Source: Thermococcus cleftensis (GTDB lineage: Archaea; Methanobacteriota_B; Thermococci; Thermococcales; Thermococcaceae). From it: 64,000 bases of DNA. The stretch is from positions 1,400,322-1,464,321 of the forward strand of contig NC_018015.1 in NCBI RefSeq assembly GCF_000265525.1. The letters run 5' to 3'. Under the pieces are notes generated by a model. The model saw only the letters and a program-made list of their open reading frames with translations, made no database searches and was not told where the DNA came from. Position numbers and translations under genes: made by a program. Numbering within the stretch: the stretch's first letter is position 1; each line of letters starts with the position of its first letter. Positions 33,829 through 39,246 of the stretch are shown here, piece by piece.

Positions 33829-34032
33829 TTAAAGCATCTTGCCCTCTTCCTTCATTCTCACGAGCCTGGTTATGTAGCCCGCTATCCTGTTCCTGATGGT
33901 CTTGCTGGTGACGTTGGTGAGCTCCTCCACCTTCTTCTTGTTGTGCTCGAAGTCCCTGGTGAACTCGTTCGGGTAGCGGTCGAACAGTTCACGGGCGGTT
34001 CTCTTGATGAAAGTCTGCTTGATGTTTCCCAT
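33829..34032 (-). CDS. rps17e: 30S ribosomal protein eS17
   Basis: A 67-residue archaeal/eukaryotic ribosomal protein: [41 protein letters not shown], then [17 protein letters not shown]. The start at ATG 34032 follows GGGGGATTGATG. An open extension to 34080 is not conserved. It is the last core gene before the accessory island that begins about 100 bases upstream of its promoter. Confidence 0.97.
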
Positions 34033-34138
34033 CATCAATCCCCCCATTAGCCTGACTCTGACAACCGTAACCCAAATCATAAGAGGCCTTTTAAAAGTTT
34101 TCTATATGGAAGAAAAAGAGGGTTATTGGAATATGATA

Positions 34139-35368
34139 TCATCTTCCCTTGAGGAACTGTGTCAACTTGAGCTGGCCCTTTGAGGAGTTGGATGCTTGAA
34201 GAGTTGTTATGTCCTTTCCACTTATCGAGTTTCTCAATTTTTCCTCTTTAATTTCAATCTCGACTTTTTCGTGCATAATGGTCATCACGTGTCTTGCAAT
34301 GAAGTATGCCAATATCGGAGGGACAGCATTTCCAATCTGCTTTAAAATCGAGCTCTTAGTTCCTAGAAACCTGAATGCATCAGGAAAGCTCTGCAACCTT
34401 GCCATTTCACGGGGGGTGATGACACGGTGTTCTTCCGGGTGCACCGCGGGAGCGTTATGATTCTCTTTCATAACGGGAGCTGGCTCGTTCCACTTGAGGC
34501 GATACCAGCTATGCTTGAACTTGGGATACACTGACTGGCCCGGAGGAGTGTTCTTTATTTTTTCTATCATCTCTGGAGAATGCCTGGTGGGGATATGGTT
34601 GTAAATGAATCTAGAGCCAACTCTCATAACTTCTTGATACGGCCGTTCGGGCGGATGAGCGTATGATTGAGGATCAGCCGGAGTTGGGGTTGGGAGATCA
34701 CTTATCCCATCCCTCACTGTGAGCGGAATCTTGGTAAGGGGCTTCAGGTGAGATGGGGCCTTCAATGAGGAGCCGAGAATTATGACACGCCTGCGGTGTT
34801 GAGGCACCCAAAAGTTGACTGCATTGAGAAGCTTTATGTTCGTCTTGTACCCGTATTCCTCGGCTCTCTCCAGAACCTTCTCAGGCACTGAATCTCCTTC
34901 GGGGGTCTTCATCGTAAGCAACCCTGAAACGTTTTCCATAACAAAGTAATCCACATCTAGCTCGTGCACCAAGCGCAGGAAGTGCCAGACCAAGTTGTTC
35001 CTCTCATCATTGGGATCCCTCTTTCCAGCGTACGAGAAGCCTTGGCAGGGGGGCCCTCCGATCACAAGCACGGGATCGTCAAATCCCTTCTCTCGTAGCT
35101 TGTTCTTTATGTCCCTTCCAGTTATCTTCCTGGCATCTGCTAGGAGAGGAATCGATGATGGGTGATTCATCCTGTAAGTTTTCAAGGCATCTTCCCAGGC
35201 ATCTAGCCCCAATGCAACGTCAAACCCCGCCATATCGAACCCAAGACTCAGCCCACCAGCACCACTGAACAGGTCAACAGTGACGGGCCTCTCGCCCCTC
35301 TTTGTTTCTCGAAGCGTCAACCACGTGGAAACTGCTTTCATTAGTTCATCCCTTGGGAATTTATTCAA
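34139..35368 (-). CDS. DNA (cytosine-5)-methyltransferase
   Basis: A 409-residue m5C methyltransferase of the Dcm/M.HhaI class. Motifs: I DLFSGAGGLSLGF (32-44, AdoMet), IV GGPPCQGFS with catalytic Cys108, VI MENVSG (144-149), VIII QHRRR (190-194), then a target-recognition region of about 90 residues, motif IX (PREMARLQSFPD) and X (QIGNAVPP). The C-terminus ends GQLKLTQFLKGR, which fits a PCNA-interacting peptide Q-x2-L-x2-F-L. I prefer TTG 35368 because GGGGGGTG lies just upstream; GTG 35383 is an alternative. Divergent from the 349-residue gene; AT-richer than the core genome. Confidence 0.93.
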   Translation of the reverse strand: MNKFPRDELMKAVSTWLTLRETKRGERPVTVDLFSGAGGLSLGFDMAGFDVALGLDAWEDALKTYRMNHPSSIPLLADARKITGRDIKNKLREKGFDDPVLVIGGPPCQGFSYAGKRDPNDERNNLVWHFLRLVHELDVDYFVMENVSGLLTMKTPEGDSVPEKVLERAEEYGYKTNIKLLNAVNFWVPQHRRRVIILGSSLKAPSHLKPLTKIPLTVRDGISDLPTPTPADPQSYAHPPERPYQEVMRVGSRFIYNHIPTRHSPEMIEKIKNTPPGQSVYPKFKHSWYRLKWNEPAPVMKENHNAPAVHPEEHRVITPREMARLQSFPDAFRFLGTKSSILKQIGNAVPPILAYFIARHVMTIMHEKVEIEIKEEKLRNSISGKDITTLQASNSSKGQLKLTQFLKGR

Positions 35369-35486
35369 TTCAACACCCCCCACTTACGTGCGATGACTCT
35401 CCTTAAAAATTTTCTGGTAATTGTTTGTTAATCATATGTTAAGCATTTTCTTAAATATCATCATCGATACTTGACGGGGATGAGAA

Positions 35487-36536
35487 ATGACGATCCCGCG
35501 GGTGGAGGAAATAGCTCAGAACTTGAGAGAATGCGCGCGTGACTTGAAAGCGCAGGGACTTTCTCTTAGCTGGGAGGGTCTTGATGAAACTGCCTTGAAG
35601 GGGGGACGGAACCTCTTCACCGCCCCAACGTGGCGGCAGTTCCACCTAGAATTCTTCAAGTTTAAGACGAACCAGAGGTTGAAAGGAAAAACGGTTGGAA
35701 GGAGAGAGTTCCAGGCTGCTACCATTCGGTGGGTACGGAACCAACAAGAGATGCTACTAAAAGCTGTCCTGAACCAGGAGTTCTATGGAAGAGGGAACAT
35801 CTTGAAAGTAGTCACTGATGATGAGGAAATGAGGAATTTCTTCGTCGATGCCTGGATATCCAAGGAGTACCTTCCACTTACAAGAGAGGATTTCGTGAAA
35901 TTCGTGAAAAGCGTGACTACTGGGCAAGAAGTTTTCCTTCAGGGAGCTCCAATTCAGTGGAAGAATCCCGAAGCGGTTACCAGGTCCTTTGGTCAAGCGG
36001 CTCTTGCGGCCTGGGAAAACGTTGAAGTCATCGGTTTTGACTTCAAGAACACCGTGGCCAACTTCTTCTCGATGACGAAGGGTCGTTCCAGGGACCTCGT
36101 TGATAGCACGCGAAGGCTCCTCGATGAGGATGATCCGGAGCTGGAGGTTGGCCTGCTGGAGGCATTGACGAGAGGCTTCTACGAAAATCAAAGCAGGACG
36201 CGCCAGCAGGTGACTCCACGCGTGTTCTTCACAATCTTCGTGTATTCCCCTGAGCTTGAGGGTGTTAGTAGAAAGGGGGACCTCTCAGCAATCGAGAAAA
36301 GGCTAGTTGACGAGTTCCTTCTCGAGGAAATGGAGAGTGGTATGAAGTCCATAACCTGGATGTATCGCGAGTTCGCCTGGGGAATAATCAATCGTAGCGT
36401 GGTCTTTCACAAGTTGCTTCCCGTGAAACTACACTTTCCCGCGGTGGAATCAGTGGTCTTGATAGCCTCGTCGATCGTGCTGGTTGTCGAGAAGACGAGT
36501 GACGGGTTCCGACCAGTCAAGGTGCTGGGCGTGTAG
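35487..36536 (+). CDS. Unrecognised protein of the m5C island
   Basis: A 349-residue soluble protein with no family or catalytic motif that I recognise. It is rich in Phe, Glu, Arg and Trp, alternates helices and strands, and ends with a hydrophobic VESVVLIASSIVLVVEKT stretch too short of charge contrast to call a membrane anchor. It is the first of three closely spaced rightward genes (this, wHTH, glycosylase), divergent from the methyltransferase. A role as specificity, restriction or control subunit is possible but unproven. The ATG follows GGGGATGAGAA, and the promoter lies in the AT-rich 35400-35465 stretch. Confidence 0.8.
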   Translation: MTIPRVEEIAQNLRECARDLKAQGLSLSWEGLDETALKGGRNLFTAPTWRQFHLEFFKFKTNQRLKGKTVGRREFQAATIRWVRNQQEMLLKAVLNQEFYGRGNILKVVTDDEEMRNFFVDAWISKEYLPLTREDFVKFVKSVTTGQEVFLQGAPIQWKNPEAVTRSFGQAALAAWENVEVIGFDFKNTVANFFSMTKGRSRDLVDSTRRLLDEDDPELEVGLLEALTRGFYENQSRTRQQVTPRVFFTIFVYSPELEGVSRKGDLSAIEKRLVDEFLLEEMESGMKSITWMYREFAWGIINRSVVFHKLLPVKLHFPAVESVVLIASSIVLVVEKTSDGFRPVKVLGV

Positions 36537-36548
36537 AGAGGTGCTGTT

Positions 36549-36842
36549 ATGGATCAAGCAATACTCAAAAAGGCATCATTCGTCAAGTCCTCTGGCGTTA
36601 GATATGGCATCATCCTTGAATTATCCCGGAGGGGCTACGCGACTCCCAAGGAAATGGCGATCGCGCTCAACAAGCACTTGCCCACGGTTAGCCGGGCGCT
36701 CAGGGAACTTCGGACTGAAGGCATCGTCGAGTTCGTCGAGCACGAGCACTCCAAGAGCAGGTTGTACTACCTGACCAAGGAGGGAAGGAGAATAGTCAAG
36801 ATGCTCTCAAGTTGCGAGGAGGCATCGTCCAATGGATCTTGA
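36549..36842 (+). CDS. Small winged-helix regulator of the m5C island
   Basis: A 97-residue MarR/ArsR-like DNA-binding protein: IILELSRRGYATPKEMAIALNKHLPTVSRALRELRTEGIVEFVEHE, followed by a wing SRLYYLTKEGRRIVKML. It starts 12 bases after the 349-residue gene (GAGGTGC ribosome binding site) and overlaps the glycosylase start by 11 bases. In restriction-modification loci small regulators (C proteins) delay nuclease expression. Those are usually XRE-type, so a comparable role here is only an inference. Confidence 0.85.
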   Translation: MDQAILKKASFVKSSGVRYGIILELSRRGYATPKEMAIALNKHLPTVSRALRELRTEGIVEFVEHEHSKSRLYYLTKEGRRIVKMLSSCEEASSNGS

Positions 36843-37446
36843 CCTCTCCACCCTTGGCGTCACCTGTGAGAATTACTACAAAAAATATGGTAGAAGATTT
36901 TTTTGGAGAGTTATGGATCTAACTCCCTTTCAAGTTCTGACGACCGAGTTTCTACTGTGGAAGACGCGCGCGGAGAACGTTGACAAGTACGGCCGTGACT
37001 TGATACTGAAGGCGTCGACGCCGGAGGTTCTTCTCGAGATTCCAGTCGAGAAGATTCAAGAGAGCATTCGACCCCTGGGGCTTTACAGGAGGCGCACTCG
37101 CTTGCTAGTTAGAATTGCGGAAACGTTGGTCAGCGAGTACGATGGGATAGTTCCAAAAGATGCCCACGAGCTTCTCTCCATTCCGGGCGTTGGTTCTTAC
37201 GTGACGGCTGCTACGTTGTTGTTTGCCCATGACTTACCATACATCCCCCTGGATTCCAACGTTGAAACGTACTTGTCCAGCGTCGCCGAGAACCTTGGAT
37301 TCTCAGTGGAGGATAGGAGGTATCCACTCCGGGATGAATACATTGAATTTTCAAGGAAGTTCTTTAACAAAGTGAGGAGTAGAAAATACGCTGGTTGGGG
37401 CTTATTGGACTTGGCTTCCCTTCATCGAAGAGAGAATAAAAAGTAG
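36832..37446 (+). CDS. Mig-like T/G (U/G) mismatch DNA glycosylase, lacking Fe-S cluster
   Basis: A 204-residue HhH-GPD glycosylase. The N-terminal RRFFWRVMDLTPFQVLTTEFLLWKTRAENV, RPLGLYRRRTRLL, the helix-hairpin-helix SIPGVGSYVTAATLL (116-130) and catalytic Asp141 in PLDSNVETYL follow the pattern of Mig from Methanothermobacter. Tyr123 occupies the position of Mig's Tyr and Endonuclease III's lyase Lys, so a monofunctional glycosylase is expected. The protein stops at GLLDLASLHRRENKK, where Mig and EndoIII continue into the four-cysteine 4Fe-4S loop; only one Cys (Cys12) exists. It probably excises thymine formed by deamination of 5-methylcytosine made by the neighbouring enzyme. Confidence 0.85.
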   Translation: MDLDLSTLGVTCENYYKKYGRRFFWRVMDLTPFQVLTTEFLLWKTRAENVDKYGRDLILKASTPEVLLEIPVEKIQESIRPLGLYRRRTRLLVRIAETLVSEYDGIVPKDAHELLSIPGVGSYVTAATLLFAHDLPYIPLDSNVETYLSSVAENLGFSVEDRRYPLRDEYIEFSRKFFNKVRSRKYAGWGLLDLASLHRRENKK

Positions 37447-37461
37447 TAACGTCACGTGATG

Positions 37462-38667
37462 CTAGACCAAGTCGAAGCTCACCGGAGGATTCCCGCTCGG
37501 GCCAATGTTGTACCCGAACACCACGTGGTTCTTGTATCTTGGATGATTCTTGATTTCTTGTTTACTGCCATTCTTCCTCCCGTCTTTTGGGTATCCACCA
37601 ACGATTACTGTGTGGAATTCTAGGTCATTACAATTCTTCAGGAGCAGTGGAGTGAACAAGTTCCTTGCTATTCTCTCGTACGTCTCGACTTCCTGCGAAG
37701 CCTGTTCAAAGATGGATCTTGTTAAGTGCTCTCTCTTCAACTCTACCAAAACTAGGTGACAGTGATTGTTTTTCTTAAACAACACGATGAAGTCCACGTT
37801 CTTCCCAGTTATCGTGAGAGGATGGTAATTGGAGAACCATAGGATGTTATTCTTGTTGAAGTTGATTCCAATTCTCTGGCTTAGTTGATTCCAGAAGTGA
37901 TCCATCTCCGGCTTGTCGATGAACATCGAGAACCAAGCCTCAAGAGCTTTCTCCACTACGAACAAGTTGGGATCCTTTGAACTCATCACTGGTAACTGGC
38001 TGATGTTTATGGAACTAATTGATTGACCTCGTAATGATGAGGCACTCCCAGTGTTATTGTTCTGAAACAGCCCATAGAACCAGGTCTTGTCCAATTTGAC
38101 GGCATTGTTTCCTGGAGCGTAATTGTTCTGACACGCTTGGGTGTTGTAGCCACGCGTGTTCCACGTTGAGCTTACCTTTTGAAACGTACTATAAATCCCA
38201 TTGAGTATCGAGTCTCCATACGGAGGAAGGGAAGTAAGGCTCTTGCCGCGATTCAGGGATTTCTTTCCGATAATGGGCCACAAGAACCCAATGTGCTGGG
38301 GTTGGGAATAAACGTAATCACCCGGCAATGGATCTTTCCATAGACCCTGGGGATTTAACTGGACTCGGAATGGATAGTTACCAGGAACGCAATGAGAAGA
38401 GGAGCCACAACACTTGGCCACGGTATCGAAATACGGCTCTCCTTCAACTTTCCACGTTCCCAGAAAGTCTTCTTCTTCACCCTGCTCATATACCCAGAAG
38501 TATATCAAATCACCTTCCCGAAGGGAAAACACATCGGACAATAGATCCCATACGGTTTTCACCGCTTTATCCTTTAACTTATCTTTTATGCCAGTAGCTA
38601 GGAAGTTCATTCCCGCGTGGACTTCCAGGGTCCCGGGAGTCACCATTGATAGGTACGCCTTCTCCAT
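37462..38667 (-). CDS. Putative restriction endonuclease: EVE/PUA-like domain plus PD-(D/E)xK
   Basis: A 401-residue protein. The C-terminal domain has a nuclease core: Asp292 in KNVDFIVLF and Glu309-x-Lys311 in LVLVELKRE, separated by 16 residues as in PD-(D/E)xK enzymes. The N-terminal domain (GDLIYFW 52-58, FLGTWKVEGEPYFD 68-81, YPFRVQL 98-104) has the strand pattern of EVE/PUA-like readers of modified bases. The middle is rich in Asn, Ser and Gln (CQNNYAPGNN, FQNNNTGSASS), unlike thermophile core proteins, and suggests recent transfer. ATG 38667 follows GGTGAT by six bases. Convergent with the glycosylase gene, 15 bases apart. Confidence 0.75.
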   Translation of the reverse strand: MEKAYLSMVTPGTLEVHAGMNFLATGIKDKLKDKAVKTVWDLLSDVFSLREGDLIYFWVYEQGEEEDFLGTWKVEGEPYFDTVAKCCGSSSHCVPGNYPFRVQLNPQGLWKDPLPGDYVYSQPQHIGFLWPIIGKKSLNRGKSLTSLPPYGDSILNGIYSTFQKVSSTWNTRGYNTQACQNNYAPGNNAVKLDKTWFYGLFQNNNTGSASSLRGQSISSINISQLPVMSSKDPNLFVVEKALEAWFSMFIDKPEMDHFWNQLSQRIGINFNKNNILWFSNYHPLTITGKNVDFIVLFKKNNHCHLVLVELKREHLTRSIFEQASQEVETYERIARNLFTPLLLKNCNDLEFHTVIVGGYPKDGRKNGSKQEIKNHPRYKNHVVFGYNIGPSGNPPVSFDLV

Positions 38668-38820
38668 CGGCAAATCACCAAGCCTTGAAGAATCAATGAT
38701 TACTTATTTTAGTTGTTAACACTTGATTATCACTTGCTTACATAGCCGAATTGTTGTCATCCACAACGTAACTCGAGCAATTTGACAATAGTTTATAAGG
38801 CCTCTCGAAAACCCCTTTCC

Positions 38821-39246
38821 ATGCTGAGAGAAGTAATCAGATGCCGCGGTCACGAGAACGTTAAAGCCACCCACAGATCGACACTGGAGTTCACCAAGGA
38901 GGACTACCTCACGCCGAGGGGTGACTGCATACTCTGTATCGAAGCTGATAAGGGGATAAACGACCTAAGAGAGGAGTTCAAGGCTGCCCTGAGGACGGGG
39001 AGGAGGCTTCGTATAAGGATAAAGGTCGGTGGTCTGGTAGATGAAGTGCTGGCCGAGGGGAGTCCGCGACTTATCCTCGACCACGGGTACTCAATGGTTA
39101 TTCGGAAAAGCGACTACGTGGACGCCAGAACCCTGGCTATAAGGGCCAACAAGGCCGCCAGGGACATCGACAGGCGTATCGTTGAGCTTCTCAAGAACCC
39201 CGAGACGATCGCCGAGATCGAGCTGGTCATAGATGAAAAAGCTTAA
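38821..39246 (+). CDS. DUF371 family protein
   Basis: A 141-residue archaeal conserved protein: MLREVIRCRGHENVKATHRSTLEFTKEDYLTPRGDCILCIEADKG at the N-terminus (the RCRGH-NV-ATH-STLE-T block is the DUF371 hallmark), basic middle, and a helical C-terminus. Function unknown, archaeal-wide distribution suggests a basic role. TATA GTTTATAAGG at about 38789-38798, so the ATG at 38821 is close to the transcript start. An open extension to 38782 overlaps that box and is rejected. First core gene after the accessory island. Confidence 0.85.
   Translation: MLREVIRCRGHENVKATHRSTLEFTKEDYLTPRGDCILCIEADKGINDLREEFKAALRTGRRLRIRIKVGGLVDEVLAEGSPRLILDHGYSMVIRKSDYVDARTLAIRANKAARDIDRRIVELLKNPETIAEIELVIDEKA

What the first reader, a model, noticed from the sequence alone, without database searches (positions are those of the whole stretch)
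34100..38780. Accessory island coupling an m5C methyltransferase, a nuclease, a regulator, an unknown protein and a dedicated deamination-repair glycosylase
Seen: divergent/convergent genes for a Dcm-type m5C methyltransferase (34139-35368), an unrecognised 349-residue protein (35487-36536), a small wHTH regulator, a Mig-like mismatch glycosylase (36832-37446) and a PD-(D/E)xK protein (37462-38667), bordered by eS17 and DUF371 core genes. The island is AT-richer than its surroundings. Established: 5-methylcytosine deaminates fast at high temperature to thymine, and a Methanothermobacter plasmid pairs Mig with an m5C restriction-modification system. Inference: this locus is a self-contained restriction-modification unit with its own repair arm, and the 349-residue protein is a new component.
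Basis: partly seen in the sequence, partly recalled or inferred. Interest (0 to 1): 0.88.

Follow-up and report, generated by a model that had tools for sequence, protein, structure and literature searches.

The report
DNA-methylation defence island carrying repair gene
A heat-loving archaeon has picked up a 4.7-kb gene cluster that appears to tag its DNA with a heat-unstable methyl mark, attack other DNA, and carry its own enzyme for the mutations the mark causes; the tag-plus-repair pairing recurs in other heat- and salt-loving microbes, but this exact cluster was found nowhere else.

Summary
The five genes are real and in place. They form one foreign insertion (34103-38790): 70 bp of left flank matches relatives up to exactly 34102, the right match starts at 38791, and 25 of 29 relatives have only 111-723 bp between eS17 and DUF371. 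Gene identities hold, with corrections. The methyltransferase has all its C5 motifs. The glycosylase keeps the Mig active-site residues but lacks the whole [4Fe-4S] tail. The nuclease is an EVE-like (PUA) sensor fused to a NucS-like PD-(D/E)xK domain, the architecture of modification-sensing restriction enzymes. The 349-residue protein is a real coding gene without detectable relatives.

The five-gene set was found nowhere else. The methyltransferase + Mig-like glycosylase core recurs: all four non-Nth Mig-like genes in 94 Thermococcaceae genomes adjoin a C5 methyltransferase. One is inside a complete DISARM operon of this same genome. The same pairing occurs on Thermus, Caldicellulosiruptor, Methanothermobacter and haloarchaeal plasmids.

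So "m5C system with its own deamination-repair arm" is well supported. "Self-contained five-part unit with a new component" is not shown: the nuclease may be an independent type IV-like enzyme, and the orphan may be the cognate restriction enzyme. New variant of a known kind (pFV1 Mig).

The parts
34103..38790 (.). the inserted island (4688 bp)
   Evidence: left flank homologous to relatives up to 34102, right flank from 38791; no direct repeat of 8 bp or more at the junctions; eS17-DUF371 only 111-723 bp apart in 25 of 29 relatives
34139..35368 (-). P0001, DNA cytosine-C5 methyltransferase, 409 aa
   Evidence: PF00145 E=2.7e-62, TIGR00675 dcm; six catalytic motifs intact; nearest in the plasmid set: Thermus plasmid MTase, 40.6% identity, itself followed by a Mig-like gene
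35487..36536 (+). P0002, 349-aa orphan protein, divergent from the MTase (118 bp between them): the position of a restriction-enzyme gene
   Evidence: coding by codon usage; no match in Pfam, NCBIfam, PADLOC, PHROGs, PDB, 115 genomes of the phylum, GTDB contigs, viral contigs, plasmids or phages
36549..36842 (+). P0003, winged-HTH regulator, 97 aa
   Evidence: HTH_24 above its Pfam cut-off, other wHTH families and Csa3-type wHTH
36832..37446 (+). P0004, Mig-like HhH-GPD DNA glycosylase, 204 aa, no Fe-S cluster
   Evidence: PF00730 E=3.9e-8; matches Mig 1kea E=4e-15; W29, R30, E42, T48, A50, Y126, D144, N146 of Mig kept, all four cluster Cys absent
37462..38667 (-). P0005, two-domain nuclease, 401 aa
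   Evidence: relative on Halobaculum limi plasmid, tblastn E=2e-13; domains by profile comparison
38155..38667 (-). P0005 N-terminal EVE-like (PUA superfamily) domain, about residues 1-171
   Evidence: hhalign to an EVE family alignment: probability 91%, score 45.2 against a maximum of 19.9 in 100 column-permuted controls
37465..37956 (-). P0005 C-terminal PD-(D/E)xK nuclease domain (about residues 238-401; D292, E309, K311, Q322)
   Evidence: hhalign to NucS: score 36.6 against a maximum of 24.9 in 100 permuted controls; invariant residues; model pLDDT mostly 60-83 beyond residue 290 and Foldseek neighbours PaqCI, FokI, EcoO109I, XisH, BamHI, all at weak E-values
33829..34032 (-). eS17, core flank (not part of the island)
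   Evidence: NF002242 E=2.8e-33
38824..39246 (+). DUF371 gene, core flank (not part of the island)
   Evidence: PF04027 E=9e-50

Best explanation
A horizontally acquired DNA-defence island built around 5-methylcytosine. P0001 methylates C5 in a short motif of the host genome as a self mark. At the growth temperature of a Thermococcales host, m5C deaminates to thymine and leaves T:G mispairs. P0004, a stripped-down Mig-type glycosylase without the Fe-S cluster, excises that thymine so that host base-excision repair restores C:G. P0003 controls the divergent 35.4-kb promoter region and so the M/P0002 balance. Restriction comes from P0005, a sensor-plus-nuclease protein (EVE-like domain flips and reads a cytosine, PD-(D/E)xK domain cuts), either as the cognate enzyme kept off by the mark or as a type IV-like partner cutting foreign modification patterns; P0002, in the restriction-gene position, is the alternative cognate nuclease. 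SHOWN by sequence: single insertion, MTase motifs, glycosylase fold and active-site residues, loss of the cluster, two-domain nuclease, and recurrence of MTase+glycosylase pairs elsewhere. INFERRED: m5C in the genome, T:G activity, regulation, restriction, and that all five genes act together.
For: One clean insertion, absent from relatives. MTase motifs complete. The glycosylase keeps Mig-type and not MutY-type (V/Q) or Nth-type (K) residues: Ala at Mig A50, Tyr at Y126, Asp at D144, Trp (not Gln) at L187 (read with PMC2714593). All four non-Nth Mig-like genes in 94 Thermococcaceae genomes lie within 1.5 kb of one of 25 C5 MTases, and in the window's own genus (61 genomes incl. own) all three C5 MTases have one. 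Same pairing with MTases only 23-41% identical to P0001 on Thermus, Caldicellulosiruptor, haloarchaeal and Mth plasmids and a viral contig. The literature treats m5C in hyperthermophiles as a puzzle because of deamination (PMC10609329; PMC8557920). Nuclease domains.
Against: No methylome, activity or expression data. The five-gene set is unique. P0004 is the most divergent glycosylase of its set (tree end branch 2.47, position unresolved) and its Fe-S tail, kept by the other Mig-like homologues compared, is gone, so it may be inactive. The only P0005 relative stands without an MTase nearby, and EVE+PD-(D/E)xK proteins are predicted to cut modified DNA (PMC7641849), which would endanger an m5C-marked host. 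P0005 has lower GC (0.459) than the P0002 gene (0.514), so the island may be composite.
Confidence: 0.62

Rival explanations
1. Two stacked systems: a type II unit (P0001 MTase, P0002 as the fast-evolving cognate restriction enzyme, P0003 as its control protein, P0004 as repair arm) plus P0005, an independent type IV, modification-dependent nuclease that reads a foreign cytosine modification not made by P0001.
For: P0002 is divergent from the MTase and co-oriented with the wHTH and glycosylase genes. In other MTase-glycosylase loci the MTase also neighbours unrecognised ORFs (Thermus 381 aa, G044 258 aa). EVE+PD-(D/E)xK architecture is listed as putative type IV (PMC7641849). The relative of P0005 is solitary. 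GC differs between P0005 and the P0002 operon.
Against: P0002 shows no nuclease motif by eye and is predicted mainly helical, though from a model of no confidence (pLDDT 35). P0005 lies inside the same clean insertion.
Confidence: 0.4
2. The glycosylase is a decaying remnant: after its 3' end was lost where it meets the nuclease gene, P0004 no longer repairs T:G and the island works, if at all, without a repair arm.
For: C-terminus ends just before the first cluster cysteine, 15 bp from the convergent nuclease gene; longest branch in the tree.
Against: Open reading frame, native-like codon usage and every active-site residue retained; a second, intact Mig-like enzyme elsewhere in the genome could in part cover for it.
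Confidence: 0.2
3. P0005 is not a restriction enzyme but a second repair arm, a Vsr-like or NucS-like nuclease that cuts at T:G mispairs in the methylated motif.
For: Its nuclease domain is related to NucS/EndoMS, the T:G-cutting enzyme of these archaea, which this genome also has; Vsr accompanies Dcm-type MTases in mesophiles.
Against: The NucS N-terminal domain is not detected (hhalign probability 0.3%); the N-terminus is EVE-like; the solitary Halobaculum relative has no MTase nearby.
Confidence: 0.1
4. The island is an accretion of unrelated defence genes with no functional coupling.
For: The five-gene combination was found nowhere else; P0002 and P0005 are orphans in the phylum.
Against: MTase-glycosylase adjacency recurs repeatedly beyond chance.
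Confidence: 0.15

Closest known systems
pFV1 of Methanothermobacter thermautotrophicus: m5C MTase + NgoPII-like restriction enzyme + Mig T/G glycosylase
   Same: C5 MTase with an HhH-GPD glycosylase close by and a nuclease candidate; same glycosylase active-site residues
   Different: Restriction enzyme unrelated; Mig has a [4Fe-4S] cluster, P0004 does not; no P0002, wHTH or EVE-like nuclease in pFV1
Own-genome DISARM (DrmA, DrmB, DrmC, DrmMII) with an overlapping Mig-like gene (G000:C1:1045008-1053547)
   Same: C5 MTase with its own Mig-like glycosylase
   Different: DISARM effectors; glycosylase has the four cluster cysteines; MTase only 30% identical to P0001
Thermus thermophilus plasmid pTthSNM7-6d
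   Same: Closest plasmid MTase (40.6%) followed directly by an unannotated Mig-like ORF
   Different: Glycosylase keeps the cluster; no relative of P0002 or P0005
EVE-HNH enzyme VcaM4I, and MspJI-type sensor + PD-(D/E)xK modification-dependent enzymes (MspJI from my own knowledge)
   Same: PUA-superfamily base reader fused to a nuclease domain (PMC7897488)
   Different: P0005 uses a NucS-like PD-(D/E)xK domain; its modification dependence is untested
Dcm-Vsr very-short-patch repair
   Same: C5 MTase paired with dedicated T:G repair
   Different: Vsr is a nicking endonuclease; here the repair enzyme is a base-removing glycosylase
NucS/EndoMS
   Same: Related nuclease domain
   Different: Different N-terminal domain; the genome's own EndoMS is separate

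Membership tests
Type II m5C restriction-modification system | Complete C5 MTase with catalytic motifs | tested here: met
   motifs I, IV, VI, VIII, IX, X found; PF00145 2.7e-62
Type II m5C restriction-modification system | Adjacent restriction nuclease | tested here: inconclusive
   P0005 has a PD-(D/E)xK domain but its EVE-like domain suggests a modification-dependent enzyme; P0002 has no motif
Type II m5C restriction-modification system | Same specificity for methylation and cleavage, cleavage blocked by methylation | not testable with these tools
   needs methylome and enzyme assay
Mig-type T/G mismatch DNA glycosylase | HhH-GPD fold with catalytic Tyr and Asp | tested here: met
   Y126, D144, E42 equivalents present; PF00730; 1kea E=4e-15
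Mig-type T/G mismatch DNA glycosylase | Non-MutY pocket (Ala at 50, not Gln at 187) | tested here: met
   Ala and Trp at these positions; criterion from PMC2714593
Mig-type T/G mismatch DNA glycosylase | C-terminal [4Fe-4S] cysteines | tested here: not met
   none of the four Cys; only C12 in the whole protein. So filed as Mig-like, not as a Mig member
Mig-type T/G mismatch DNA glycosylase | Phylogenetic placement with Mig | tested here: inconclusive
   long branch, unresolved
Mig-type T/G mismatch DNA glycosylase | T:G excision activity | not testable with these tools
   needs assay
EVE-type modification-dependent nuclease (type IV) | EVE/PUA-superfamily sensor domain | tested here: met
   hhalign 91%, score 45.2 against permuted maximum 19.9; below Pfam thresholds, so remote
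EVE-type modification-dependent nuclease (type IV) | Nuclease domain with catalytic residues | tested here: met
   D292, E309, K311 invariant with relative; NucS-like
EVE-type modification-dependent nuclease (type IV) | Cleavage only of modified DNA | not testable with these tools
   needs assay
NucS/EndoMS | NucS N-terminal dimerisation/DNA-binding domain | tested here: not met
   hhalign of P0005 N-terminus with NucS 0.3%
R.PabI-type restriction glycosylase system | HALFPIPE-fold glycosylase of the PabI family | tested here: not met
   P0004 is HhH-GPD; contrasted with PMC10273834
DISARM | DrmA helicase and DrmB present | tested here: not met
   absent from the island; present elsewhere in the genome

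The most novel reading that the evidence does not exclude
Methylation, modification sensing and base excision form one mechanism: the cluster-free glycosylase P0004 and the EVE-NucS nuclease P0005 act in sequence on the same sites (base excision or T:G sensing followed by strand cutting), so that defence works by base excision plus nuclease rather than by ordinary restriction, with P0002 as an added specificity or scaffold subunit.
Probability: 0.07. Interest if true: 0.85.

Novelty: new variant of a known kind. Interest (0 to 1): 0.52.

Why it matters
m5C is thought to be badly suited to life near 80-100 C; a recent survey of archaeal restriction systems calls its presence in hyperthermophiles a conundrum and suggests silencing as the answer for the persistent CCWGG methyltransferase (PMC10609329). 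Here mobile m5C systems in Thermococcales, including a DISARM operon, travel with their own Mig-like glycosylase, a second and directly testable answer. If P0004 is active it is a T:G glycosylase without the iron-sulphur cluster. P0005 adds a NucS-like version of the sensor-nuclease architecture.

Tried and rejected
(1) P0002 relatives: Pfam, NCBIfam, PADLOC, PHROGs, PDB, 94 then 115 genomes of the phylum, GTDB and viral contigs, plasmids, phages: nothing; the weak hits at residues 243-284 are PstB-type ABC ATPases, rejected as chance. (2) P0002 structure: pLDDT 35, not used further. (3) P0005 relatives by pattern scans of GTDB and viral contigs with the two-row alignment: none. The A1 profile against PDB gave only a sugar kinase at E=0.8, rejected. 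(4) Foldseek of P0005: no hit below 0.001; weak PD-(D/E)xK neighbours used only as support. (5) Junction repeats or a tRNA at the site: none. (6) Tree placement of P0004: long branch, inconclusive. (7) P0003 against wHTH proteins of paired loci: no similarity.
Full report
OBSERVATION. Hidden Markov searches name the MTase (PF00145, E=2.7e-62), the wHTH and the HhH-GPD glycosylase, and give nothing for the 349-aa protein and the 401-aa nuclease. Codon usage shows the 349-aa gene to be coding. Flanks are eS17 and DUF371. GC falls to about 0.44-0.53 in the island from 0.54-0.62 in most of the flanking sequence.

INSERTION. DUF371 was located in 88 of 94 family genomes. In 25 of the 29 relatives fetched, eS17 lies 111-723 bp away (12 at 111-136 bp, 11 at 329-342, one each at 209 and 723), against 4.8 kb here. 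Local alignment places the left break at 34102/34103, shared by 13 or so relatives at the same base, and the right break at 38790/38791; no junction repeat of 8 bp or more and no tRNA. In the longer intergenic type of relative the insertion takes the place of about 225 bp.

HOST. The genome (1.95 Mb, one contig) is a Thermococcales: its EndoMS matches the solved 5gke and 2vld enzymes, which I know to be from Thermococcus kodakarensis and Pyrococcus abyssi, at E=6e-120 and 6e-103. That it grows near 80-90 C is inference from this kinship.

GLYCOSYLASE. P0004 aligns with Mig (1kea, E=4e-15). Against Mig numbering it keeps W29, R30, E42, T48, A50, Y126, D144 and N146 and has W, not Q, at 187. The A50/L187 pair separates Mig (T/G) from MutY (A/G), and Y126 is needed for T/G activity of Mig (PMC2714593). 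The other Mig-like homologues compared carry the four [4Fe-4S] cysteines; P0004 has none and stops where the first would be. It is also the most diverged member and a tree does not place it. So it is Mig-like, not a proven Mig, and could be a working cluster-free form or a remnant.

NUCLEASE. The only relative found is WP_277556200.1 on a Halobaculum limi plasmid (26.7% over 79%, E=2e-13), with no DNA MTase within about 7 kb. Their alignment shows invariant D292, E309-x-K311 and Q322. Profile comparison with families taken from the host's relatives gives the N-terminal part as EVE-like (probability 91%, score 45.2; maximum of 100 column-permuted controls 19.9) and the C-terminal part as NucS-like (score 36.6; permuted maximum 24.9). 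The single-sequence model is confident only in parts of the C-terminal domain, whose weak structural neighbours are mostly PD-(D/E)xK or related nucleases. EVE+PD-(D/E)xK proteins have been predicted to be modification-dependent restriction enzymes (PMC7641849), and the EVE-HNH enzyme VcaM4I flips m5C (PMC7897488).

ORPHAN. P0002 has no relatives in any collection searched. It stands divergent from the MTase, the usual place of a restriction gene, and restriction enzymes are known for having no detectable relatives (general knowledge), so it is a candidate cognate enzyme; nothing shows this.

CO-OCCURRENCE. No other genome searched has P0002 or P0005 within the phylum. But the MTase-glycosylase pair recurs. 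Among 94 Thermococcaceae, the Mig-like genes other than Nth are four: P0004; one overlapping DrmMII in this genome; one overlapping DrmMII in G081; one overlapping the MTase in G044 beside a 258-aa unrecognised protein. All four adjoin a C5 MTase; 21 further C5 MTases in other genera have none within about 1.5 kb. In the window's genus (61 genomes incl. own) there are only three C5 MTases, all three paired. The two DISARM cases are homologous, so these are three independent pairs. On plasmids the same pair occurs in Thermus, Caldicellulosiruptor, Methanothermobacter pFV1, Halorubrum, Halobaculum, Haloplanus and Halomicrobium, and a viral contig has a Mig-like gene 2.5 kb from an MTase. The MTases concerned are only 23-41% identical to P0001, so the partnership follows m5C chemistry rather than one lineage. 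The haloarchaeal cases show that it is not confined to hot environments.

MECHANISM. Most likely: self-marking by m5C, thymine removal from T:G by P0004, regulation by P0003, and restriction by P0005 and/or P0002. The first two rest on family knowledge and recurrence; the rest is inference. An m5C-reading P0005 would be dangerous to an m5C-marked host, so it either reads another modification or sequence context, or is the cognate enzyme with altered reading; this is the main open point.

COMPARISON AND NOVELTY. The pairing as such is known: Mig on pFV1 has been linked to m5C deamination since 1996 (Horst and Fritz, cited in PMC2714593). I found no held paper that reports Mig-like genes in DISARM or as a recurrent companion of m5C MTases in thermophiles, but subscription papers and REBASE are not covered. 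PADLOC files this glycosylase family as a type II nicking endonuclease, which suggests REBASE already lists some as V genes. Hence 'new variant of a known kind'.

Noticed in passing
L094:6870-7547 (G000:C1:1052869-1053546); DISARM in L166:9009-13166 and L094:3169-6918: The same genome holds a complete DISARM operon (DrmA, DrmB, DrmC, DrmMII) whose MTase gene overlaps a Mig-like T:G glycosylase gene by 49 bp, followed by a tyrosine recombinase; G081 has the same arrangement (L097). I found no report of a glycosylase in DISARM.
   Followed up: partly
L166:4958-5389 and L166:1067-4453: Upstream of the DISARM genes lie a stand-alone EVE-domain protein and a 1128-aa helicase with a PLD-like N-terminal part, suggesting a larger defence island.
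   Followed up: no
L095:4821-8080 (G044): Another Thermococcales system: 258-aa unrecognised protein divergent from a C5 MTase that overlaps a Mig-like glycosylase gene.
   Followed up: partly
L099:5014-5712 (Thermus plasmid pTthSNM7-6d): Unannotated Mig-like ORF overlapping the end of the MTase gene, with an IS1634-type transposase gene just downstream.
   Followed up: partly
L101:4989-9244 (IMG/VR contig): Viral contig with a Mig-like glycosylase, a Dam-like MTase, a C5 MTase and several unknown ORFs between them.
   Followed up: no
L004, L007, L008, L009: Haloarchaeal plasmids also pair Mig-like glycosylases with C5 MTases, so heat is not the only condition that favours the pair.
   Followed up: no
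eS17-DUF371 gap in relatives (L065, L066, L068, L071 and others): About half of the relatives carry about 225 extra bp between eS17 and DUF371, perhaps a small conserved ORF on the minus strand; absent in the others and in the window.
   Followed up: no
L162, L163: In two genomes (G020, G019) eS17 is not within roughly 17 kb upstream of DUF371, so this junction is rearranged in some lineages.
   Followed up: no
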